NCBI GenBank assembly: GCA_003024785.1
Contig: PUQB01000156.1
Coordinates: 372,001-436,000, forward strand
DNA length: 64,000 bases
From: Selaginella tamariscina
Taxonomy: Eukaryota; Streptophyta; Lycopodiopsida; Selaginellales; Selaginellaceae
Direction: 5' to 3'
Shown here: positions 2,030-60,964 of the stretch, one piece after another
Position numbering within the stretch: the first letter of the stretch is position 1
How the letters are laid out: every line of letters begins with the position of its first letter
Translations under genes and position numbers: made by a program
Notes under the pieces: generated by a model
Database searches by the model: none
What the model was told of the DNA's origin: nothing
Seen by the model: the letters and a program-made list of their open reading frames with translations, nothing else

Positions 2030-3808
2030 CTAAAAGTCATTTGCTAAACTACGTTTGTCATTACAAGGGGACAGAGCTTTCAAGAGTGTTCCCCAGTCAG
2101 AGACATCTGGGACAAAAGGCATCTCCTTAACTCCTTAGCCTTATCGGATTGACCAGCCCGGGCAAGCGTATCAACTAACGAACAGAACTGCATCCGGCTT
2201 GGAGCAATCCCATACTCATCCCATATCAACCAAAGTGCGAAACTCCCTCCTCGACAAGGCCGATATGGTTACATGCAGCTAGCAGGTGCATCATTGTGGT
2301 GTCGTTCGGGGGACACCCTCATTCTGCATTCTCCAGAAGCTGACTATCGCCTGTCTCCCACAAGCAAACCGTCCACAAGCTGCAATCATTGTGTTCCATG
2401 TTGCAGTGTCTTGCTGGGGCATTCTATCAAAGCAGTTCTTTGCCTGTCTCTCATGTCCATTGTGTATGTATGCAGTAAGCATGGTGTTCCATGCGATTGT
2501 GTCTCGGTGTGGCATTTTATCGAAGAGCTCCTTAGATTTCTCTAAACGCCTCATCTGGGCATATGCTGAGATCATTGTTGTGCATGACAGAATATCTTTC
2601 TCTGGTAAGTCATTGAATGTGTTCTCTGCTTTCTCAAACTCCATGTTTTGAACAAATATGCACAGCATTGTGTTCCACGACTGTGTGTCCCTCGCTGGCA
2701 TTCTGGAGAAGATCACTTCAGCTTCCTTGATATGCCCTTTCTGGGCATATGCAGTAAGCAATAAAAGCCAGCTTACTACATTGGAAACAGGCATTGAAGT
2801 GAAGTGTTTCTCGGCGTCAGAGACATACCCAGACTGGCCATAAAGGTGTAGAATAGAGTTGTACGAGGTTATGTCTCGCTCGGGCATTCTATGAAAGAGG
2901 TTTAGACCTGGTTCAATATGCCCTGCTTGGGCATATGCTGAGAGGAGTGCATTGAAAGAAACTAAATCTCTTTCTGGCATTGAATCGAATACTGCTTTTG
3001 CTTTGCACAATTCTCCACTCTGTACATACGCACCTATCATGGTGGTGTACGTAAAGAGGTCGCGTTCCGGCATAATCTCATAAGTACGCTCAGCCGCTAT
3101 GTAATGTCCTCTCTGAGCATCCGCAGACAAGATGGTGTTCCAGGAAACAATATTCCACTGTGGCATTGAATAGAACGTCTTTCTAGCTTCTTCAAAGCAG
3201 CCATTCTGTACAAAACCTGCAACCATAGCCGTCCAGGAGTATATGTTCTTCTCCTGCATATTGTCGAAGATTAACTTGGCTCTCTGCAGATGCCCTTTCT
3301 GGGCATATGCAGAGAGTGCTGTTGTCCAGGTAATATTATCCCACTCAGGCATTATAACAAAGAGTTCCCATAGCTCATCTAGCATTCCTGCTTGTGCGTA
3401 GCCTCTGATCATGGTGTTGCAAGTAATGAGACCTCGTTCCAGCATTTTATTAAAGAGACTCTCTGCCTCGGTGATATGCCCATTCTGGGCATATGCAGAA
3501 AGGAGTGTGTTCCATGATGGGCTGTTCCATTTGGGCATCCGATAGAAGAAGTGTTCAGCCTGTTGAAGACTTCCCTTGTGGGAATACACAGCAAGCATTG
3601 CGTTCCACGAAACAATGTCGCGCTGCGGCATTTTGTCGAAGACAGACTTGGCCTCGGTGATATGCCCACTCCGGGCATGTCTTGCAATCTCATTGTTGGA
3701 GGTAAAAACGAGTTCTTTGTTGATCTTACGCTGAGTAGTTCTCCTGGAACGTTTTGCGGAACCACCAACAGGATAATCCTTCGATGCTGCTATACCCACA
3801 TCGGTCAT
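2030..3808 (-). CDS. intronless PPR protein with short ~31-residue repeats
   Basis: Pentatricopeptide-repeat protein. The family binds organelle RNA for editing, splicing or stability. The first 505 residues are one open frame of about fourteen ~31-residue repeats of the type 'FDKMPxRDxVSWNxMLxAYAQxGH', that is, S-type repeats in tandem. No E or DYW domain is seen. The open frame stops at 2291, but the adjoining frame continues a coherent repeat tail (MMHLLAACNHIGLVEEGV, then SLVDTLARAGQSDKA, then DWGTLLKAL) to a TAG at 2030-2032. Reaching it needs three single-base corrections: a C-run near 2310, a T-run near 2200, and a G-run near 2120. The N-terminus MTDVGIAASKDYPVGG is basic further in but is not a clear transit peptide. 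The gene is divergent from the carboxypeptidase, about 0.6 kb away. The repeat style is the main clue to a Selaginella-like plant. Confidence 0.9.
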
Positions 3809-11400: not shown

Positions 11401-13067
11401 CATATTATGGGGTTTAACACGCTTAATAATGAATTTAATTAGATTGATCTTTATAATTTTAATTAATTTTGCCATAATTTCATTAATTTTTACATTTGCA
11501 TATATGAGTTTAAAGATTACAATGTGTTGTCCACAAACATAAGGACAACTTTAAAAGGGCAATTACATTAACATATATATTGTAACATTTCTATTCATAA
11601 CAAAAAAATAAACATAAGTAATAATAATTTAAGTGAACATGATCATCATCATTAGGTTATATCTAATTACATAATAGGTTTTTTACCTCGCAAAACATAT
11701 GTAACATGAGTATTGATATATGAAGCTCAAGTCACCATCCCTGTGTTATATACTAATATACATACATAATATGCTACTTTATAATTCATTTCAAAAATCA
11801 AAATTAGAATAAGGTCTAAGATATTTATATCTTTAATTTACAATATATAATGCATCTTTAGTATTATAAGATATTCTATTTTTATTTATTTTTTATTTAT
11901 TAAGCAAAATTTAAAGCTAAAACAAAAACTAAATCATTATATCCTTAAACTATACTTTATCATTAGATTTTAAAACTAGTTTTATCACTTACATATGAAA
12001 TAATAGAATATATAGTAATATCTTTAGTAATAATTTTAATGCGAGGTGATGAGTTTGGATACTAATGATGAAATATATGGTAAAAATATATTTCATTCAA
12101 TTAACCTTAAATTATACTTTAAGATTTTAATTATACAAAACTTAATGTAACTAATGTTTGCAATTAGGAGGTTAGTTATTGACGATCTAAATAGTGAACT
12201 TAATTTTCTTATAATATATATGTATTAATAATAAATCTAATAAATAAAATAAAAGTATATTTAAATATTATAAAGATATAAGATTCAATATACATATTAA
12301 TTTTTGTATTATTTAAAAGGTTATTATATAATTTAATTTGAAAATGTCATTACCTAAACTTAAGTCGATATTTAAATGAATCTTATCCATTTTGATTGGA
12401 CATAGTGTATATGCATGCGTGCTTGTTTAAATTCAAGTTATGTGTTAAAGTTACCTCACTTAAATTCTTAATATAAATATATATGTGTGTATTCTATTTA
12501 TCTTTAACTATATTAATATGTATGAATTTAATATGGAGCTAGCTTATGCTTTATCATTTAAATATACACATGCATAATTTAATATGCATATATTATCTGC
12601 TGAACATAACTAATGCATATTAAATTATGCATGTGTATATTCATATTAAAATTTAAATGATAAAGCATAAGCTAGTTCCATATTAAATTATAATAATCAT
12701 AATAATGAAAATAGTATTAATTTAAGTTTTACTGTATATTCTAATTGTTTTTTACTATTAATATTTTAAAATAAAGTTTAAAATTAAATAAAATTTAAGG
12801 TATACAACATTTTAATAATAACTTTTAATAACTTCATTTTTTATATTAAATTCTTTAATGGTGAATTTAACGAAATTTAAATAATAATAAAAGTTTATTT
12901 ACTTAATAATCTGAGTTAAAAGTACAATGCTCTAGTCAAAGATCGAATCTTTGAAACTTCTGCACTGAGTAGAAGAGTGGAAGCTGACATCATCAGGACG
13001 TAATACAAAGTGCAATTTATTAATTTAATTCTTAATCAAGGGCTTATTGATAATTAAAACTCCATGC
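8441..13067. other. 4.6-kb AT-rich gene-free region
   Basis: Strongly AT-rich, with poly-A/T runs, (AAT)n patches near 8960 and 9010-9035, and no exon-like segments that I can support. Long open frames are absent. A ~165-bp foldback lies at 12526-12690. Around 12900-13065, just downstream of the first peptide gene, I see nothing else. Confidence 0.6.
12526..12690. repeat. long inverted repeat (foldback / MITE-like hairpin)
   Basis: The left arm runs from AATTTAATATGGAGCTAGC at 12526 to about 12590, and the right arm from about 12612 to 12690 is its near-perfect reverse complement. The arms differ by one mismatch (GAGCTAG versus GAACTAG) and one ~12-nt insertion in the right arm, with a ~20-nt central loop. 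It could be a MITE, a foldback element, or a miRNA/siRNA-type hairpin. No clear target-site duplication was recognised. Confidence 0.75.
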
Positions 13068-13436
13068 TTAAGGATTCCTTACGTTGTGAGATGGATCGTC
13101 GTAATCATTTGGATGAAGCAAACTCCCAAGGTTCCGTTGTTTTATAGTCATTTCTTCAGCCTATAAGTGAGTTTAATTAAATTAAAACTTTACATATCTT
13201 ATCTATTTAATTTTGAAAATTAAAGATCAAAACTGCAAAAGTAGCTGCAGTTTTGTTTATAAATTTATATAATGTATCTCACCTTGAGTTTGCGAGGCTC
13301 CACAGCTGCAAGAAATTAACAATTAGTAAATAAAACTTCTAAATTAGATAGATTAATTACCTGATAATGCACCAAATATCATTGTGAGGAAAACCATGAA
13401 GAAGACAAGAGCACGGAGGAGCCGTGTGAAACTCAT
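13068..13436 (-). CDS. PSY-like sulfated-peptide precursor A, 3 exons
   Basis: Small secreted-peptide precursor of about 63 residues. Exons: 13436-13361, 13305-13283 (23 nt) and 13160-13068. The signal peptide is MSFTRLLRALVFFMVFL then TMIFGALS, followed by a short basic/acidic spacer. The C-terminus reads HPNDYDDPSHNVRNP-stop. The Asp-Tyr followed by xxPSxN matches the start of the PSY (plant peptide containing sulfated tyrosine) mature peptide, whose Tyr is sulfated in the Golgi by TPST and which is perceived at the cell surface. The gene shares intron number, phases and the 23-nt middle exon with the next gene, so they are tandem duplicates. GTAAGG directly after the SHN codons could be a further donor site, in which case the C-terminus would differ. 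Confidence 0.7.
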
Positions 13437-13985
13437 AATGTAAAACTAAACAAGACTGATTGTGTGAAAGTGTGCAGAATGACACATGGGCAAAGTGGTG
13501 AAAGTTTGTATTTAAATTGGGTGGTATATTAGTTTAATCTATTAGTTTATAGTTTTTCCTACCAATGAACATATTTTATATTAATTAGTTACATGGTGTA
13601 TAATTTTATGTCCATTAATATATGGTATCTTAAAGGCCAGCCAGCCAAATCCCACTGCCTTTTGCATTGTAGGAAGCCACCAAGTCAGCTATCTATTTAA
13701 TTAATATCTTAATCATTTATATGCATCTTATTTATATAATTTTACAATTTGCTTAAGAATATTTTCATTGTCAATGCTTACCAGCTCAGTTACAGCTTGT
13801 TACTGTACATACGACTAACTCCGACACGTTTTGAGGACCATGTGTTCGAAATTTTAAATAATTATAAAAATATTTAATATGTATTTTAATTGAAATGGAT
13901 TTAAATACTGAAGAATGATGTATATATCTCAACACACAAATAATGTACAGACACTTTGGTTAGTTAAGTTAACCAGATAGTTAAC
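13437..13985. other. spacer between two peptide genes
   Basis: AT-rich intergenic DNA that should include the promoter of precursor A on the minus strand. No coding or RNA feature is recognised. Confidence 0.5.
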
Positions 13986-14341
13986 TTAACCTGCTCTTGG
14001 AGCTCCATTCCTCGGATCTGTATTATGAGAGGGCGCGTCATAGTCATTGAGGTTCACTAAGCTTCTTTTCCCCCGTAATTTTCTGCTCTCCATCTTGGAT
14101 AGTATTTTCTCCATTTCACGATCCTGTTAAACACCCGTTAAACTTTGCAAAACTTTGTAAAATAGACACTTACTCTAGCTGCAAAGTAAGTATTTCCTGA
14201 AAAGAAATACACAAATAGATAAGAAAATAGAGAAAATATATATAACTATTTTAATTTACCTTCGTTATCAGATGCAGCACAAGTAAGCAGTAGCAACATC
14301 AGCAGTATCGAAGTAGCCACTAACACGCGAAAAGAAGGCAT
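13986..14341 (-). CDS. PSY-like sulfated-peptide precursor B, 3 exons
   Basis: Small secreted-peptide precursor of about 76 residues. Exons: 14341-14260, 14196-14174 (23 nt) and 14123-13986. The signal peptide is MPSFRVLVATSILLMLLLL then TCAAS. A charged spacer follows (DREMEKILSKMESRKLRGKR), which could include a basic processing site. The C-terminus reads NLNDYDAPSHNTDPRNGAP then RAG-stop. This C-terminal block resembles PSY peptides: Asp-Tyr, Pro at +3 from Tyr, Asn, then Asp-Pro-Arg-Asn. Both introns match precursor A in position and phase (first exon ending in phase 1, second exon of exactly 23 nt). The open frames are free of frameshifts. The PSY assignment rests on this motif and architecture. 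The receptor and activity are not visible here. Confidence 0.75.
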
Positions 14342-16655: not shown

Positions 16656-16964
16656 TTAATTCCCAGGTCTCATAGAAGCTACAGGTCCAGGAACAGTGAA
16701 GTCTTTTGATTCGAAGTTGGTATTGTATAATCATCTTCTTCTTCTAGCTTGATGTATCTTGTATATTGAATTGGAGATTCACTATTATTGACATTTAAAT
16801 CTGACAAACAACAATGTATGCTAAGAACACATATATACACACACACGCACGCATGCACACACACAATTCATGTGTATACCTTCTGAAAGTGGTCGATATG
16901 TGTGTATAAAACCGACTTGAAGGAGAAGAATTGCGAAGATGAAGAGTTTGTAGCGATTCTTCAT
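16656..16964 (-). CDS. candidate secreted-peptide precursor C (DY motif), 2 exons
   Basis: Exon 1 (16964-16880) encodes a signal peptide, MKNRYKLFIFAILLLQVGF then IHTYRPLSE, ending in phase 1 like precursors A and B. Exon 2 begins at 16800 and gives an acidic segment with LEEEDDYTIPTSN. In the straight frame it ends at 16679 (QKTSLFLDL). With one base added near 16712 it ends SKDFTVPGPVASMRPGN at 16656. The second reading keeps the PSY-like spacing DYxxPxxNxK and adds a Pro/Gly-rich tail typical of processed plant peptides. The acidic residues before Tyr suit tyrosine sulfation. The intron contains (CA)n. Assignment to the PSY, CIF or another sulfated family is not settled. Confidence 0.5.
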
Positions 16965-17356
16965 GTTGTTCTTGTGAGTGTTTGTGTGTTTAAGTGGGTT
17001 TTATTTAGTAAATGCTAGACGCGTTGAAGTATATAGTCTTTAAAAAAGTATCACTTTCATGATCATGCTATATAGTCTTTAAGTCAATATTGCCTTTAAT
17101 AGTATGAAATATTTTATAATATTCCTTTAATATCATAATATTTATACTGGTATATTTTTTTAATTGACAATAAATATTACATTTACATTTAAACGTCTTC
17201 ATGTGAAACTGTCGGCCTGTTCTCATGGCAGTAACCCCGCTCTGCATGTTCGAATCTTGATCGAAGTTATTAACGTTCCAAGCCACTTATAATCTAATAT
17301 ATACACATCAAGAGCATACGTAACTATAAAGAAATATTTTGACACGATGACAACGC
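16965..17356. promoter_or_regulatory. divergent upstream region, peptide gene C and GT61
   Basis: 392-bp AT-rich spacer between two oppositely oriented start codons. It should carry both promoters. No specific element is called. Confidence 0.4.
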
Positions 17357-18874
17357 GTGTGCAGCACACAATTTTTGAACAAGAGCAGGATGAAGATGAA
17401 GCATCCATCCGTCACGAAGATCCTTGTCTTTCTCTTGGTAGCATTCTTGTTGAGTCAGATCGTGGTAGACAGGTTGCTAGTTAAAAATCCATTGGGCAAA
17501 TGTTCTCCAGTGCATCTCTCCAGCAACAGTGAGATTAGCGAGATTAACCAACGGTTTAACATAAGCGGGCGAATGCCAGTGACGGAAGCCTTCCAAGGTA
17601 AACTTGTCGATGCATCTCAGGTGAAAGCGTTAGCTCCCAAGGGAATACGCAGCGAATTCGAAGTGAACAGAAACATAGGTGGGTACGGTCTCACCGTGGT
17701 AAGGAACATATGTTTCCGTCCGGGAGGCGAGGTTGTTCTTGTAAACATCACAGATGGGTATCTCAACGAGACGCTATCAACGTCCCCGGAGTTTCGTAAG
17801 CTCTGGAATGCAGGTTACAACTCGACATGTGGATGGTGCCAGAGGACAACCACAGGGCTTACTAGGGATACACCTTTGGGAGCGAAATGGATCAGTGGTA
17901 ACACCGCACACATGATACCTTACTTAGGAAATGTTTTCCATAACTTTGGGGAGCGTATCTGGCCTCATCTCGCCTCGAGCAACCTACCTCTGAATGCCAC
18001 GACGATGCAACCTGTGAATCACTTCCTCATACACAGCTTTACCAAGTGGATCCAACAAGCGGAGGAAGGGAACCACGAGCGAGAGACTTTCATGGTACAG
18101 TTTAGGGTTCTATCCGAGGTCTCCCCAGGCTCGGACTTTATAGTGATCGACTCGGTGGGTCAGGACGCTACGGTATGTTTCGAGAGGTTAACTCTAGACT
18201 GTTCCTCATGCGACCGCATGTCTGGTTTGCTGGGGGAACAGGCATTCTCTGCAGCGATTCTCGCTTACAGAGAGGCTGCATTTAGGGTTTTCGGTCTCGA
18301 ACCGAGGCCGGAGGTCTCAGTACCGCCAAGGAAACTGCATGTCGTGTTCTACGGTCGGAGTGATACTCGCAGGAGGCGGGTGGTTAACACTCGGCAGGTG
18401 GTGGAGTATCTGCACGCAAAGAAACTCCCACCGTTGGAGGTTTTGTTTATTGACGAGCTGCTCGTGGGGCAAAAGTACAACCAGACTATGGCAGAGACGG
18501 TGTCACTCTTTTCGCAAACGGACGTCCTTGTAACGGTTCACGGGGCAAACACGTGGGCGGCTATGTTTCTGCCGCGCGGTGCAGCTGTGATTGAGATATA
18601 CGGTCCGTGCGGACCGGGGACGTGGTTAGGTGACGTGGTTAAGGTGTTGGATTTGAAGCATGACACGGAATCGAACCCGTGGAAAGATAGAGTGGCGTCT
18701 CCGGGAAATACTACTGAGTGTCAAGGTTTTGATCACACCCCAGATTTTACGTTGGATTTAGTTAAGCTTGACCATGCTTTTAACAAGCTGGCGATTCCTA
18801 CTGGACCGCTTGATACTATTCCACTTCATTGGTTGTATGACTGGGAAAAACAAAAGATATGCCTACATTTCTAG
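17357..18874 (+). CDS. GT61-family glycosyltransferase, type II Golgi membrane protein
   Basis: Single open frame of 505 residues without introns or frameshifts. Family GT61 (DUF563) includes plant xylan arabinosyl- and xylosyltransferases, the N-glycan beta-1,2-xylosyltransferase and EOGT-like enzymes. A short cytosolic tail is followed by a signal anchor (ILVFLLVAFLLSQIVV, about residues 21-36), fitting a Golgi type II enzyme. The catalytic domain shows VVFYGRSDTRRRRVVN, then SLFSQTDVLVTVHGANTWA, then FLPRGAAVIEIYGPCG, all typical of the GT61 C-terminal half. Several N-x-S/T sequons lie in the lumenal part. An in-frame ATG at 17390 (MKMKHPS) fits a compact anchor better than the first ATG. 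The precise sugar and acceptor cannot be told. Confidence 0.88.
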   Translation: MCSTQFLNKSRMKMKHPSVTKILVFLLVAFLLSQIVVDRLLVKNPLGKCSPVHLSSNSEISEINQRFNISGRMPVTEAFQGKLVDASQVKALAPKGIRSEFEVNRNIGGYGLTVVRNICFRPGGEVVLVNITDGYLNETLSTSPEFRKLWNAGYNSTCGWCQRTTTGLTRDTPLGAKWISGNTAHMIPYLGNVFHNFGERIWPHLASSNLPLNATTMQPVNHFLIHSFTKWIQQAEEGNHERETFMVQFRVLSEVSPGSDFIVIDSVGQDATVCFERLTLDCSSCDRMSGLLGEQAFSAAILAYREAAFRVFGLEPRPEVSVPPRKLHVVFYGRSDTRRRRVVNTRQVVEYLHAKKLPPLEVLFIDELLVGQKYNQTMAETVSLFSQTDVLVTVHGANTWAAMFLPRGAAVIEIYGPCGPGTWLGDVVKVLDLKHDTESNPWKDRVASPGNTTECQGFDHTPDFTLDLVKLDHAFNKLAIPTGPLDTIPLHWLYDWEKQKICLHF

Positions 18875-19691: not shown

Positions 19692-21912
19692 TTATGAACC
19701 ATCTCTGGCTCTGAGCAACTTAGTTGCATCCTCTTGTCTACCACTCATCACAAGGCTCTCTACAACAGCCTTATAAGTCTCCTGCTTGAGAACAACACCT
19801 CCACTAGCCTCCCTAATTATCTCATAAGCCTTCTCAACTCTCCCCGTCTTACACAACCCAGTAACGAGCGCGTCGCAGCTGACAGCATCAAGAACATACC
19901 CGACTTCCTCATCTGCTCGTACACGTCCACTGCCTCATCCATCATAGAACCTCGACACAAACCCGATATAAGTATCCGGAATGTACACGTATCCGGTTTA
20001 ATCCCCCTTGAGTGCATCTCCTTAATAACTTCATTAGCTCTACCAAGCTTACCAAGCTTGCAGAAACCATCAACCACCGTGTTGAAAGTTACCACAGTTG
20101 GCTGCACTCCCTTCTTGAACATGTCTCTGTATAGCTCCTCAGCCGTCTCCATCTCACTCTTCTTACAGTAGCCCGAGATGAGAGAGTTATAAGCAACTGC
20201 ATCCGGGACTATACCCAGCTCGGACATCCTCCGGAAGAGCTCCCTTGCCTCGGACACCTTCCCGGCTCTACACAGACCAGAGACAAGTGTAGTGTATGTA
20301 TACTTGTTCCCCTTACAACCTGCCCGAGACATGTCTTCAAAGAGCTCCATAGCCTTGGTTAACTCCCCCTTTCGACACATTCCATATATCAATGTGCTGT
20401 ATGTCACAACATTCGGAACATACCCTGCAGCACGCATCTCCTCGAAGATCTTCAAGCCTTCTTCAACCCGTCTGGCTTTGCATACAGAGTCGAGCAGAGT
20501 GTTATAAGTCACCAAGTCAGGAGAGCAACCTTTCTCTTTCATACTTACCAACAAGGACCTGGCTTCCTCAAACTGAGCATTATGACACAATCCACGGAGA
20601 ACCACGTTGTAATCTGCTACGTTTGCCCCAATACCACTCTCTTCCATCTGCTTAAACCTTTTGAGAGCATTGTTAACCTTGTTAGCTTGGCACAGTCCGA
20701 GTATAAGCTCGTGGAAGACAAGCCTGTCCGGCTTGCACTCTGTTTCGAGCATCTCATCGAACAGACGACTTGCATGCTCGACTCTCCTCGCCTTACACAA
20801 GAACTTGACGAGTGTCGAGTATGTAGAAACCGAAACCTTCATCCGTCTCATTGTCATCTCCGACAGGACCCGCAATGCATCGTCCAGTTTACTAATCCTG
20901 GCATAACCATCCACAAGCATATGATATGAGAATGTATCTGGTGCATACCCCGCTTCGACCATCTCATCAAAGATCTCTCTCGCCTTCTCCATGTTGTTGA
21001 TCCTCACAAAGCCTTGTATAACACCGTTAAACGCAAATATATCTGGTGGACACCCTGTTCTGGTCATCTCCTCAAGGATGAAGCAGCTCTCCTGTGTCTT
21101 GCCTTCTCTGATAAGACCCTTGATCAAGGAAGTGTATGTAAAGACATTGGGAGATATCTTCTTCTTGTCTTTCATCTCAGTGACAAGCTTCTTTGCCTCG
21201 TCCGTCCTGCCTGAGTTGCATAGGCCCGCAATCAACGTGTTGTATGTCCATCTGTCGGATTCCACATTCATCTCCGTGAAGACTTCCACGCCTTTCCCAA
21301 CCCGCCCAGCATTGCAGAACCCGTTAATGACCACGTTATATGTGAGAGTGGCAGGTTTGTACCCGTTCTTCTTCATCGTTTCGAGAACTTCGAGTGCCCG
21401 ATCTACATATCCGGCCCTTGAAAGCTTCTGTATGATCACATCATAGCTGTCTGGATCAACCATCTTCATCTTGGATAACACCATGTCTGCATCTACGCCT
21501 TTCCCTGCCTTTCCTAGCTCCGAAGCCACGCTTGAGAGGGTGTCCATGTCCAGATACGTACCTTGAGTGTTCACGTACTCAAGGAGCTTATCAACTTCTG
21601 AAGTCCGTCCGAGCTCTCCCAAACGCTGTATGAACAGCTCCAGTGTGCGAACTCTGGGTGTGTGTCCTGCAGATACCATTGCTTCGAATGCTGTAAACGC
21701 CTCGTCCAGGGATCTCCTTGTTACATATGCGTGTAACACCAAGTTTAGACTGTCTGTGTCCGTGACCTTCAGTCCCTGAGATTTCATCCGCTCGTAAACC
21801 TGGATTACCGCCTACAAGAAGTATGCATGGGCTTCAGCAATCTCGTCTGTGTGTATGTGTGTTAGATTACGTGACTTTCCCAGTAACTAATTGGTATGTT
21901 CTCTATGTTCTA

Positions 21913-32300: not shown

Positions 32301-36715
<4,415 letters not shown>

Positions 36716-38628: not shown

Positions 38629-39599
38629 TCACACACACGCAAGTAGCTTCGATCACATTGAATGAGTTTTACACACACACACTCAAAGAACGACTGCATG
38701 ATTTGGTTTTTTCAAGGTGGAGCTTGTGGATACGGAAGCCTGCCGAATACACCGTACGGATTAGATATCGCAGCTGGAAGTCCCGTGCTATTCAAGAACG
38801 GAATGGGATGTGGAACTTGTTACAAGGTTTGTAAAACACACACGCACACACACTTTAATAAATGTGCAGGTGAAATGCGTGGAGGACGTGGATCAACCAA
38901 TGTGTTCTGGCTTCCTGTTAAAGTAGTCGTTACTGATGAGTGCCCAGGTGGTCCGTGTGCGGGAGATGCAGTACATTTTGATCTGAGTGGTACTGCATTT
39001 GGAAAGCTTGCACTTCCTGGCAAGGACTCCATGCTTCGTAACAGTGGTTTTATCCACATTCTCTACAAACGGTGTGTGTGTGTGTGTGTGTTATAATCTA
39101 CAACATTAAAACATCGTTGTGATATAATATGGGATAATATGAATTATAATACAAGAGTTTATATTCATTTCTGATGATGACATATTTGATAGTGTGCCAT
39201 GCAATAATAGCCCAGTGGTTTTCCAAGTTGCACAAGGTTCAAGTCCGTACTGGCTTGAAATTCTCGTACGCTACCTTGACGGTCCTGCTGACCTTGCAAG
39301 TGTTGAGCTTCAGCAGGTGCGCGCGCGCGCGTGCGTGCGTGCGTGAGTGTGTGTGTGTGTGAGAGAGAGAGCACGTATTAATGTTGTATATTCAGGCTGG
39401 TACACCTACATGGCTACCAATGCACCAAAACTGGGGAGCTAATTGGTGTTTTAATGGAGGACCGTTGACTGGACCGTTTACTCTAAGGTTGACTTCATTG
39501 ACCACTGGTGAACAAATTGTTGCTGAGAACGCGATTCCTGAAAATTGGGTAGCTGGACAAAGCTATACTGCTGCTAGACCTGTCAACTTCAATCCTTGA
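38427..39599 (+). CDS. beta-expansin B, 5 exons, tandem copy
   Basis: Exons: 38427-38549, 38717-38826, 38870-39071, 39193-39316 and 39396-39599, in the same positions and phases as expansin A only 156 bp upstream, so the pair arose by tandem duplication. The signal peptide is MARALVVIALVCFFSLLML. Then come ATWYGDPYGAGTD, GACGYGSLPNTPYGLDIAAG, KNGMGCGTCYKVKC, VVVTDECPGGPCAGDAVHFD, LSGTAFGKLALPGKDSM, and the C-terminal domain LVRYLDGPADLASVELQQ and NWGANWCFNGGPLTGPFTLR. Single-base corrections are needed in exon 1 (about 38490, before PWEPATATW) and exon 3 (about 38908-38912, before LPVKVVV). Residues differ enough from copy A that both seem to be under separate constraint. Confidence 0.92.
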
Positions 39600-43626: not shown

Positions 43627-45072
43627 CTAATTCAGAGGAGTAGCGAATCTCCGGAAGAGATTGTTGTCCAGTAGCCTTTCCATGGCAGCTTGTGGCAAGG
43701 CGATAGCAATCTCCCTGCTTCTGCCTCTGTCTGGTGTAGAGAGCATAAAAGCAACTCCATCACCGAAACTGGTCGACAACAGGGAATAGTGAACTGGCTT
43801 CCCGAATCCAAACTCGGTTAGATTGGGAAAGTGTACAAGCTGGTGCAATACACGTCGGTTCCCTTGTACAAGTCGCAGTTGAAGCCGACTTTGAGGCCCT
43901 TGTTCATCTGCAGCTGCATCCAGTCTATGCGGATCTGATGGTCTCCATGCTGATGGAGTTTATGTCCCGGTGGATGAGATTTGCAGCGAAGGAGAGGTGA
44001 TTGGCTTTGATATCACCAGCCAGTGCCGGCAAGCATGCCATATGAACAGCGTTCCCAAAGCTTCCAGCTGGTATTACTGGGTCCCAACGCTTAGGATTGT
44101 TGCGAAGCTGATGGCATACATGTACTTGGTCACAGATTCATCATCCAGCTGACGTGCTTCGGTCATGCACTTCCACACCAGTGCAGCCATTGCCTGAAAC
44201 GAAGTTGCTCTGCCATAGCTGAAAGGACCATCTTCAACTTCTTTCACAAGAGAAGCTACCTTATCTTCAGAGATGGTAAAGACGACACGGTGATATATTT
44301 CTCACTTATCTTCTTGTAGTTGATAGTTGCCCAGCCGGATCGCAACAGCATAGTCTCTGCGGGAATCTTCACTTGGGAGGTTTCTGGCCAAGCACACGCC
44401 AAGGTTGAAGATAGGTGGATTTGAGAGAGGTAATCCTCTATGGACTTCAGACCACGATTGCATGAACTGGAATGAGGAGACCATCCGCCACGGTTTCTGA
44501 AGCAGCGTAACCGAGTGCAATGGATCCACAGCTAAACCTTGTCACCTTTCACAGTTTGACACTAGCTTAGGAATGCAGAAAGGGCAAATGTAGAGAAACG
44601 TTACCTGGATCTGGATGAGTGGACTAGTTACACCTTCAGCAAATACGAATTCATCTTGTGTTACCAGCTGAGCTTCAATTTCGCATTTCTGGGCATTTTC
44701 AAGCCTGAGAAGAACAAAACAACAGTCAGTAAAGCTACATGAGAGATGGAGTAACGCAGGCTGAGGAAGAAACCTTGCTTCCGTGGTAGCCACGTGGAGT
44801 GGGATTCCTTGGTCATTGCAGTTGACGACCATCCGACCTCCTGCATCTTGTGCTTCTCCTGCCAAGGGATAGAAATGGACGAGAACTGAAGACAGTGACT
44901 TTTTAAGAGCATCTACAACGTCTTTGAAATCAGATGGGGAAATGTTGGACTTGTAGTAGTAGACTTGCTTGACATACGTATTTGTAATCAAGTCTAGATT
45001 GGAAAGCAACCATAAGCAAGGCTGAGCAGTTGGAACTGCTGGTACAACGGTGTGCACTTGCACTTGAATCAT
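43627..45072 (-). CDS. BAHD (HXXXD-type) acyltransferase, 2 exons, frameshifted
   Basis: Acyl-CoA-dependent acyltransferase of the BAHD family, which acylates phenolics, amines or alcohols in the cytosol. Exon 1 runs from 45072 to about 44607 (VVPAVPTAQPCLWLLSNLDL, then SLSSVLVHFYPLAGE, GIPLHVATTEARF and SPLIQIQ). Exon 2 begins near 44549 (FSCGSIALGYAASETVADG, FMQSWSEVHRGLPLS) and continues across several frames (SEKYITV, TISEDKVASLVKEV, SFQAMAALVWKCM, AGSFGNAV-like) to FGFGKPVHYSLL, PQAAMERLLDNN and the stop at 43627. The first signature, normally HxxxDG, reads ETVADG here. The DFGWG signature reads EFGFG. At least five single-base corrections are needed, so either this copy is decaying or consensus quality is poor. 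The usual substrate cannot be inferred. Confidence 0.78.
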
Positions 45073-51423: not shown

Positions 51424-53042
51424 TTAAGAGTTGACAACGTGGCAACTCTTTCTAACCTGGCCAACCTCGGGGTTAACCACGCTAGTTAATTTAACAAAAC
51501 CTCTAGAAAATGCATCAAAAAACTTGCCTTGGTCCTGTGCATATTCGGCAGCATATTCTGAAGTCCTTATATCTCCTTGCATAGCCGCATCCACACTGAA
51601 TAGAATCCTCTTTTTTGCACCGTCTTTGAAGAACATGTTGTCAAATCTAAAACACATATATCAACACACACACACAATGCTATATGCATAAAGAATACAC
51701 ATATAAAGTACAGACGTACAGATGTTTATGTATATGTACACGTCTATGTGTACTCTCACCACACACATACATTTCTTATGCATATACAGATGTGTCTATC
51801 ATGATATGTAGATATACAGATACATCCACATTATACAAGAATACAACAGTTATAACGATATACTAAATATACATGTGTCTGTATATCTGTACATATATAA
51901 CAACGGACAAATACACATAGTGGAACCTATGAAGTGATTATAGTATGTACATTACATCACATGTTACACATACACATTAAGATGATGTCAACTCATATTA
52001 TGGTTGTCAATACACACATAAAGAGGAAACGCACACCCACACGCACAACCTGAACATTGTGGAATCGTTTGGAATAGCTGTAGCATTGAGGTAGTATTGA
52101 GGACTGGGGCATAATAGTCTCAAAGCAACTGAATAAATCCCATCCAATGATGAATCGACGGTTGGATATAATCTGTTCATCACACTCAAACAGTGTCCAA
52201 CTCCCAGCGTATGAGCCCCTACAAACAATTAAAACACATACATTTAATATACATATTCGGGCTTATGTGTGTTTTGTGTGCATTAAGAACACACACACAC
52301 ACACGCACCTATGAGAGCAACAGATTCTTCTGCTGTGATGCCTATAGACTGAAAATCCTTGAGAATGGCATCAATAGAGGACGTTGCAGTTGCTAACTTA
52401 GAATCTGCAAGTGCATAGTTTGCTCTTGTGCTATCCTTACGCCCTGTTAAGATCGATATATTCGGCCCCCCCGCCTTATATAAACAAGTTCGTAATTAAT
52501 GCATTTGTAATGATCCACGTTTTGTGTGGATATACTCTTTCTGTGTATATATATCGTTACGTACACACACACACACACACACACATACAGCGTACCAGGA
52601 GAATTGCATCACGGGCAGCTAAAGCAACAATATCTGCACATGAAACAGTATTCGGGCAGCTTGCTTCTAAAGCCGACTTTATACGGTCAATGAAATCCAT
52701 ACGCCGTATTCCAAAGTTCTTGGGCGATTCTAGCTCACTCCTGAATTGTGGTGTTGTATCCAAAAGTATAGATCCATCACATCCCTGTGACACAGTGTGA
52801 GTGAGAGAATGAGAGAGAGATGACATACATACCATGATATCGCAGTCGTGAAATGCGAGCCGAAGCAATGCAGCGCCTGCAGTTGGGTCCTGGGAGAGAA
52901 GATTCATAAGCGTCTGTCTAACAATGTTTTCTGCGTTTGGGCAGCTAGAATCGTAGAAACCCATATTCAACGACAAAGAATTCACAGCCCCACAAGCAAA
53001 CAAAGCCCAGGAAACGAAAATGTACTCAAGGAAGAGTGCCAT
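51424..53042 (-). CDS. class III secretory peroxidase, 5 exons
   Basis: Secreted heme peroxidase acting in the wall on phenolics with H2O2. Exons: 53042-52833, 52784-52596, 52474-52309, 52218-52050 and 51646-51424, all joining without frameshift. The signal peptide is MALFLEYIFVSWALFACGAV. Family motifs: the mature start SLNMGFYDSSCPNAENIV; distal Arg and His in LLRLAFHDC; GCDGSILLD; SCADIVALAARDA; GGPNISILTGRKDS; proximal His in GAHTLGVGHC; RFDNMFFKD; and the C-terminus VRKSCHVVNS. The residues between the distal His segment and GCDG read DIM rather than the usual short V/Q-rich linker, at an intron junction. Divergent from the downstream membrane-anchor gene, 248 bp between starts. Confidence 0.94.
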
Positions 53043-59898: not shown

Positions 59899-60964
59899 AT
59901 GTGCTTGAGCTCCAGGATGAGAGCCCTCTTATCCCTCAGAAATCCCCAGAATCCCATAATGAATCTGTATCAGAATCCCATGAATCCCATGAATCTCAAG
60001 CTCTCAGAAGACGAGGATGAATCCACAAACGAGACGGGAGAGTCACCGAGCAGTCTGAGTAACCATGAAAATGGAGCACAGTCGAAACACTGTCCGAGAG
60101 GTCACTGGCGTCCAGCAGAAGACGAGAAGCTCCGTGAGCTTGTCTCTCTTCACGGTCCACAGAACTGGAACATGATCGCCGAGAAGCTCCATGGCCGATC
60201 AGGTAAGAGAGAGAGAGAGAGAGTAGCTGCTGCCCATCAGCTCCAATTCATAAAATACTTCCTTCAGGAAAGAGCTGCAGATTAAGATGGTTCAATCAGC
60301 TCGATCCCAGAATAAACAGGCAGCCATTCAGCGAGGAAGAAGAGGAGCGCCTCCTTGCAGCACACAGGTTCCACGGTAACAAGTGGGCGATGATAGCGAG
60401 GCTGTTCCCGGGAAGAACAGACAATGCGGTGAAGAACCACTGGCACGTCGTCATGGCTAGGAAGTACCGCGAGAGGACACGGCGTTCCTCGACCAATCCC
60501 TCACTGAGGAATGAAGAACAGACTGAACTGAGAGGTACCAAGCGAACACTGGAAGAACTAAGCGGGTTTCAACATATTCATCCCCAACAATCCCATTTCC
60601 CCTTGTTCTTCCCGGATTCATCCGCAGGTAACGTAAACTCGTCTGGATTGCTGGAAACGCATGAAAATATATTGATTTCTATGCAGCGACCGCGCCGAGT
60701 GGGATGAAGGTCTGTACATCTTCCCCGTTTATGGAAGAACTGCAGAGATATTCCTGCAGTACAACGAGTAGCACCACGGATTTCACTACGTGCAGCGAGC
60801 AAGTCTCACATAAGAGGCAGAATTGCTTCAGAAGGCTTGTGGACAAGGAGAAACTGACGGTCTCAGATGGGGTCTCGTGTACGAGCGTGGATCAATCCAA
60901 CGATGAACAGCTTGAACACAAGAATGCTGTCCAGTTTATAGATTTCCTAGGTGTTGGTGCTTGA
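59899..60964 (+). CDS. R2R3-MYB transcription factor, MYB52/54/105/117 group (subgroup 21)
   Basis: Two exons: 59899-60203 and 60268-60964. R2 is [20 protein letters not shown] then [20 protein letters not shown] and [10 protein letters not shown]3 is [20 protein letters not shown] then [20 protein letters not shown] and [19 protein letters not shown]. The GPQNWN and NHWHVVMAR signatures define the MYB52/54/105/117 group, which in Arabidopsis acts in secondary wall, boundary and mucilage control. The intron interrupts the GRSGKSC codons, a family-typical site, and holds (GA)n right after its donor. Upstream is a repetitive NPMNP segment and an acidic Ser-rich part. A 1-nt shift before about 60690 separates the middle from the C-terminus, which ends [13 protein letters not shown], the group's conserved C-terminal motif. 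Confidence 0.93.

What the first reader, a model, noticed from the sequence alone, without database searches (positions are those of the whole stretch)
13068..14341. Tandem pair of PSY-like tyrosine-sulfated peptide genes
Two unreported-size genes (63 and 76 residues) lie next to each other on the minus strand, each with a signal peptide, two introns in the same phases, an identical 23-nt middle exon, and a C-terminal NDYDxPSHN block. The pattern of Asp-Tyr, Pro, Asn and then DPRN matches PSY hormones, the plant peptides also mimicked by bacterial RaxX. Gene A's shorter tail (VRNP) lacks the Asp-Pro part, so it could be a diverged ligand or an antagonist. Genes this small are usually missed by annotation.
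Basis: partly seen in the sequence, partly recalled or inferred. Interest (0 to 1): 0.75.

Follow-up and report, generated by a model that had tools for sequence, protein, structure and literature searches.

The report
Cluster of truncated PSY-like hormone genes
A spikemoss-like plant carries what look like three small neighbouring genes for secreted peptides that begin like the plant growth hormone PSY but lack its usual ending; no RNA or peptide evidence was available to confirm them.

Summary
The two small genes are there. Gene A encodes 63 aa; gene B encodes 80 aa, not 76. Both have a signal peptide, a phase-1 and a phase-0 intron, and a 23-nt middle exon equal in length but not in sequence (2 of 23 bases). 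Both carry NDYDxPSHN. A third likely gene, C (16964-16679, DYTIPTSN; splice donor uncertain), lies upstream on the same strand. A, B and C are the only DYxxPxxN-plus-signal-peptide candidates in the window. 0 of 200 shuffled windows had one, and 212.8 kb of neighbouring DNA had none. 'PSY-like' is half right. Positions 3-8 score as PSY for A (p=0.0002), B (0.003) and weakly C (0.03), better than as RGF or CIF. The defining PSY tail NxxHxP is absent in all three, so the strict PSY motif is not met; nor is the RGF motif. In the 300.7-Mb genome DYxxP[ST]HN occurs at 5 places: A, B and three without a signal-peptide model. Best reading: a local, tail-lost, PSY-derived group of secreted peptides, probably tyrosine-sulfated. 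Transcripts, sulfation, receptor and relatives in other species remain untested. The antagonist idea has no evidence.

The parts
13068..13436 (-). Gene A: exons 13436-13361, 13305-13283, 13160-13068; 63 aa; C-terminus HPNDYDDPSHNVRNP
13986..14341 (-). Gene B: exons 14341-14260, 14196-14174, 14123-13986; 80 aa; C-terminus LNDYDAPSHNTDPRNGAPRAG
16679..16964 (-). Gene C (new, likely): last exon 16800-16679, one phase-1 intron; end of first exon uncertain (donor at 16879, 16864 or 16846, giving 68, 73 or 79 aa); C-terminus EEEDDYTIPTSNQKTSLFLDL in each
13361..13436 (-). Gene A signal-peptide exon
   Evidence: hydropathy rule, not SignalP
14260..14341 (-). Gene B signal-peptide exon
   Evidence: hydropathy rule
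16880..16964 (-). Gene C signal-peptide exon, shortest of three possible ends
   Evidence: hydropathy rule
13283..13305 (-). Gene A 23-nt micro-exon; encodes the RxLx site RKLK
14174..14196 (-). Gene B 23-nt micro-exon, same length and phase, unlike sequence
13083..13106 (-). Gene A DYDDPSHN core (PSY head)
14022..14045 (-). Gene B DYDAPSHN core (PSY head)
16709..16732 (-). Gene C DYTIPTSN core

Best explanation
A, B and probably C are small secreted hormone precursors of a Selaginella-lineage lycophyte, derived from the PSY family by local duplication. The likely path is: signal peptide removed; Tyr of the Asp-Tyr pair sulfated by TPST; precursor cut by subtilases (RxLx sites: RKLK and RNLG in A, RKLR and RSLV in B, RPLS just after the signal peptide in C; B's RSLV-xxx-DY has the register of the PSK4 subtilase site); release of a short peptide starting at sulfo-Tyr with core DYDxPSHN, which acts on a leucine-rich-repeat receptor kinase. 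Shown: gene anatomy, the core shared by A and B, the PSY-type head, absence of the PSY tail NxxHxP. Inferred: transcription, sulfation, cleavage, a receptor of PSYR type, and common descent with PSY.
For: Shared intron phases and micro-exon length, unique shared model. Strong splice sites in A and B (118). A and B alike over residues 26-end (0 of 5000 shuffles). Synonymous-biased changes in the core. Three DYxxPxxN candidates on one strand within 3.9 kb; 0 of 200 shuffled windows have one, 0 of 300 reach three with the looser DYxxP, and 212.8 kb of neighbouring real DNA has no DYxxPxxN candidate. Head score as PSY: A 12.0 (p 0.0002), inside the leave-one-out range of the nine Arabidopsis PSYs, 9.8-16.7; B 7.2 (p 0.003); C 2.3 (p 0.03); RGF p 0.06 or more, CIF p 0.12 or more. 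AtPSY2 motif DYDDPSANTRHDPSVPT from Table 1 of PMC11534595. RXXL/RXLX as subtilase sites: PMC4983112 passages; their places in A, B and C. PSK4 site RRSLVL/HTDY: PMC7913133 passages.
Against: The tail (positions 9-13) scores -5.9, -8.6 and -6.1 as PSY, against 7.7 to 16.4 for the nine PSYs; B and C also score below the PSY range on the head. The RGF head is so variable that A (0.8) and B (0.7) fall inside its leave-one-out range, -4.0 to 11.2, so RGF is disfavoured mainly by its tail. C is not alike A or B beyond chance in pairwise alignment (637 and 812 of 5000 shuffles reach the score, 61), has only weak donors (16879 at the 92nd percentile, 118; three options, 137) and lacks the micro-exon. 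No homologue was found elsewhere. PMC7913133 says the SBT1.1 site is in none of the PSY precursors, so B's RSLV points to PSK-like processing as much as PSY. RxLx is a loose motif. The p-values rest on 9 PSY sequences, and A and B are not independent. The scan rules were written after I had seen C.
Confidence: 0.58

Rival explanations
1. A lycophyte sulfated-peptide family that is not PSY by descent and hit on a DYxxPxxN head independently, with its own receptor.
For: Strict PSY and RGF motifs both fail (definitions; scores in 76). Tail scores low for PSY, RGF and CIF (76). No relative found in the protein searches. B carries PSK4-like RSLV-xxx-DY spacing.
Against: Head of A matches AtPSY2 at 7 of 8 positions, p 0.0002 as PSY (76).
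Confidence: 0.22
2. Diverged RGF/GLV/CLEL peptides.
For: B has D1 Y2 P5 N13; lycophyte RGFs are known to have diversified (PMC8329595 section 12); A and B heads fall inside the wide range of real RGF heads; RxLx sites as in GLV1.
Against: H8, P9 and P10 are absent in A, B and C; A ends before position 13; RGF head p 0.06 to 0.36 and tail p 0.20 to 0.98 (76).
Confidence: 0.07
3. Decaying PSY duplicates (pseudogenes) that have lost the tail.
For: Each lacks the conserved His and part of the tail; A and B appear to lack different tail residues (by eye).
Against: Open frames, strong splice sites in A and B, third-position bias in the core (28, 41, 118).
Confidence: 0.09
4. Chance open frames, not genes.
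For: No transcript evidence; no database homologue; Pfam gives nothing above its cut-off.
Against: Null tests.
Confidence: 0.04

Closest known systems
[quoted passage not shown]
   Same: Small precursor with signal peptide and C-terminal motif starting DY; A shares DYDDPS-N-R with AtPSY2; wheat and tobacco PSY genes also bear introns (PMC11641228 and PMC12153210 passages).
   Different: Position 7 is His or Ser, not Ala/Pro; no H11, no P13. A and B have a 23-nt exon whose counterpart in PSY genes was not examined.
RGF/GLV/CLEL
   Same: D1 Y2 P5; B also N13; RxLx subtilase sites as in GLV1.
   Different: No H8-P9-P10; A is too short to reach N13.
PSK precursor (PSK4)
   Same: B has RSLV three residues before DY, the spacing of the SBT1.1 site RRSLVL/HTDY; similar precursor length (PSK4 79 aa).
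   Different: No YIYTQ.
CIF/TWS1
   Same: DY start.
   Different: CIF head score is at chance level (p 0.12 to 0.40).

Membership tests
PSY | Asp-Tyr at positions 1-2 | tested here: met
   A, B, C
PSY | Ala or Pro at position 7 | tested here: not met
   His in A and B, Ser in C; motif from PMC7913133 passages
PSY | Asn at position 8 | tested here: met
   A, B, C (sequences)
PSY | His at 11 and Pro at 13 (NxxHxP tail) | tested here: not met
   A NVRNP-stop, B NTDPRN, C NQKTSL; tail scores far below the nine Arabidopsis PSYs. One soybean PSY in print lacks the last Pro (PMC7913133 passages).
PSY | Precursor 60-200 aa with the motif in its second half and a signal peptide | tested here: met
   A 63 aa, B 80 aa, C 68, 73 or 79 aa; signal peptide by hydropathy rule only
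PSY | Sulfation and perception by PSYR1-3-type receptors | not testable with these tools
   needs mass spectrometry and binding assay
RGF/GLV/CLEL | D1, Y2, P10, N13, with P5, H8 and P9 highly conserved | tested here: not met
   P10, H8 and P9 absent in all three; N13 only in B (PMC8329595 section 10)
PSK | YIYTQ pentapeptide | tested here: not met
   absent from A, B and C (sequences)
CIF/TWS1 | Resemblance to the CIF head, positions 3-8 | tested here: not met
   p 0.12, 0.13, 0.40 (5 CIF/TWS1 sequences)

The most novel reading that the evidence does not exclude
A lycophyte lineage has shortened a PSY hormone to a DYDxPSHN core ending in His-Asn, without the HxP tail that all nine Arabidopsis PSY motifs carry and that the bacterial and nematode mimics share, and kept it in a tandem set. 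Such peptides could be minimal PSY ligands, or could occupy the receptor without the tail's effect. That would separate the part of PSY that binds from the part that signals.
Probability: 0.3. Interest if true: 0.65.

Novelty: new variant of a known kind. Interest (0 to 1): 0.45.

Why it matters
PSY hormones hold a growth-versus-stress switch (their receptors signal when ligand is absent, per PMC10629525 passages), and pathogen mimics carry the same NxxHxP tail. Natural precursors that keep the sulfo-Tyr head but not that tail would say which part of the hormone is needed. They would also show that searches using the strict PSY pattern miss lycophyte members.

Tried and rejected
Protein search with B: 2 candidates, none at E<=10. 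A search with part of B plus designed variants of the core, to widen the exact-word seeding: 31 candidates, none at E<=10. With a core this short a true relative could also miss that threshold, so neither is proof of absence, although the database does hold S. moellendorffii proteins. Bacterial genomes: 80 stretches matched a pattern, none a relative at E<=1e-3. Own genome with B and with A's last exon: only themselves. AtPSY2 17-mer in own genome: no candidate at all, so nothing learned; it did not even return gene A (119). Gene A has a donor-like GTAAGG just after the core. The phase-0 readings behind the four downstream acceptors within 400 nt that scored at or above the 80th percentile restore no HxP tail, so I kept NVRNP-stop. 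RGF was my own first preference (D1 Y2 P5 H7 N13 in B); the scoring moved me to PSY. Text search for PSHN: 98 papers, 30 listed, none opened; nothing can be said about the rest. Whether true PSYs exist in this genome was not settled.

Full report
The window lies in a 300.7-Mb genome of 1391 contigs, at C456:372001-436000. The GT61 gene at 17357-18874 (one open frame) is 63% identical over 96% to a Selaginella moellendorffii protein and 47% to Diphasiastrum, the two best of 17 hits at E<=1e-10, with 7996 candidates scored. So this is a Selaginella-lineage lycophyte, probably not S. moellendorffii itself. Size and contig number recall the published S. tamariscina assembly; that is from memory, and one paper search for it found nothing.

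Observation. Both gene models stand. B is 80 residues, not 76, and the middle exons share length and phase but 2 of 23 bases. Enumerating GT-AG models upstream of each core, within set size and donor limits and with a signal-peptide rule, gave 4 three-exon models for A and 19 for B (and 1 and 7 two-exon models). The only shared combination of middle-exon length and phases is 23/1/0, top-scoring in both. Splice sites of A and B score between the 86th and 99.9th percentile of GT or AG sites on that strand (the matrix is recalled). Residues 26-end of A and B align above all 5000 shuffles. Both last exons open with xxEM. Within 2 kb on one strand the window has 103 pairs of 9-residue segments alike at 8 of 9 or better, 16 of them at 21 of 27 bases or fewer identical, the A/B core among them. 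Such pairs are thus not unique to these genes; by eye several others lie in the PPR gene or in local repeats.

Third gene. A six-frame motif scan showed DYTIPTSN at 16732 on the minus strand. The upstream DNA holds an ATG, a signal peptide and a phase-1 intron: gene C. I then wrote a scan of both strands for the motif within 35 residues of a stop, preceded by an in-frame or spliceable signal-peptide exon (one or two exons only). For DYxxPxxN it returned A, B and C and nothing else. A and B came up through two-exon stand-ins that skip the middle exon. C came up through donors 16864 and 16846. The donor I had drawn by eye (16879, AAG before GT, 68 aa) scores 4.94, under the cut of 5.5. C's first exon therefore has three possible ends (68, 73 or 79 aa); the C-terminus is the same in each. 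Markov-shuffled windows gave 0 of 200, and the bare motif near a stop averages 0.155 per shuffled window against 3 here. With the looser DYxxP, already in the first scan, the real count is 3, the null mean 0.03, and 0 of 300 reach 3. In 22 stretches (212,815 bases) of the same contig outside the window there is no DYxxPxxN candidate, 1 for DYxxP and 2 for DY. For DY alone the window gave 5 against a null mean of 1.76, 2 of 300 reaching 5, so Asp-Tyr by itself says little. C's weaker points are its donors, the lack of the micro-exon, and no pairwise similarity to A or B beyond chance.

Family. With motifs from Table 1 of PMC11534595 I scored three families. I used 9 PSY, 10 of the 13 listed RGF-type motifs and 5 CIF/TWS1, cut to 13 residues. 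RGF4, GLV8 and GLV9 were dropped for length, and PSK was left out. Positions 3-8 as PSY: A 12.0, B 7.2, C 2.3, with p 0.0002, 0.003, 0.03; leave-one-out PSYs score 9.8-16.7, so only A lies inside. As RGF: p 0.06, 0.07, 0.36, but A (0.8) and B (0.7) lie inside the wide leave-one-out range of RGF, -4.0 to 11.2. As CIF: p 0.12, 0.13, 0.40. Over positions 3-13 the PSY p-values are 0.001, 0.024 and 0.052; the RGF value for B is 0.054. Positions 9-13 as PSY: -5.9, -8.6, -6.1 against 7.7-16.4. So the head is closest to PSY, best matched by AtPSY2 (A identical at 7 of 8, and 8 of 13), and the tail is gone. By eye with a gap, A keeps R-N-P and B keeps T-D-P of the PSY2 tail TRHDP; that is suggestive only. 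By the published definition DYXXXX[AP]NXXHXP (PMC7913133) none is a PSY; by the conserved RGF residues D1 Y2 P5 H8 P9 P10 N13 (PMC8329595) none is an RGF.

Rarity. DYxxP[ST]HN occurs at 5 places in the genome (reversed control pattern: 2): A, B, one on C125, and one sequence seen twice (C1248, C1269). The last three have no signal-peptide model by the same rules. C does not fit this pattern. Database and bacterial searches found no relative, but the method is weak for an 8-residue core.

Mechanism. TPST recognition is tied to Asp-Tyr and favours acidic surroundings (PMC13074997 passages); C has EEEDDY, A and B have NDYD. Subtilase RXLX sites (PMC4983112 passages) lie outside the signal peptide at RKLK and RNLG in A, RKLR and RSLV in B, RPLS in C; the motif is loose. 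B's RSLV stands three residues before DY, as at the PSK4 cut RRSLVL/HTDY (PMC7913133 passages). The rest (cleavage, receptor, agonist or competitor) is inference. PSY binding represses constitutive PSYR signalling (PMC10629525 passages), so a head-only ligand could either repress as PSY does or compete; sequence cannot decide.

Papers seen. PMC8329595: outline, sections 10-12 and passages. PMC11534595: passages and section 6. PMC8708909, PMC7913133, PMC8872720, PMC10629525, PMC4983112, PMC11331138, PMC11641228, PMC12153210, PMC13074997 and PMC13091385: passages only. All others: search listing only.

Noticed in passing
window 16964-17357: Gene C and the GT61 glycosyltransferase open frame are divergent, about 0.4 kb apart.
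   Followed up: partly
window 12540-12690: By eye an AT-rich inverted repeat, MITE-like.
   Followed up: no
window 13077-13082: Donor-like GTAAGG (97th percentile) directly after the core of gene A; the downstream phase-0 readings checked gave no PSY tail.
   Followed up: yes
L029 and L030, base 1501: A frame ending exactly in DYLIPTHN-stop, the same in two contigs (C1248, C1269); no signal-peptide model.
   Followed up: partly
window 34331-34825, 38662-39096, 44542-45072, 52557-53042, 59899-60285: Open frames with Pfam matches of ordinary plant genes: AAA (FtsH-like by eye), DPBB (expansin-like), Transferase family, peroxidase, Myb.
   Followed up: no
window 2291-3808 and 19817-21787: Long uninterrupted frames: the first is a PPR protein by Pfam; the second looks like PPR by eye only.
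   Followed up: no
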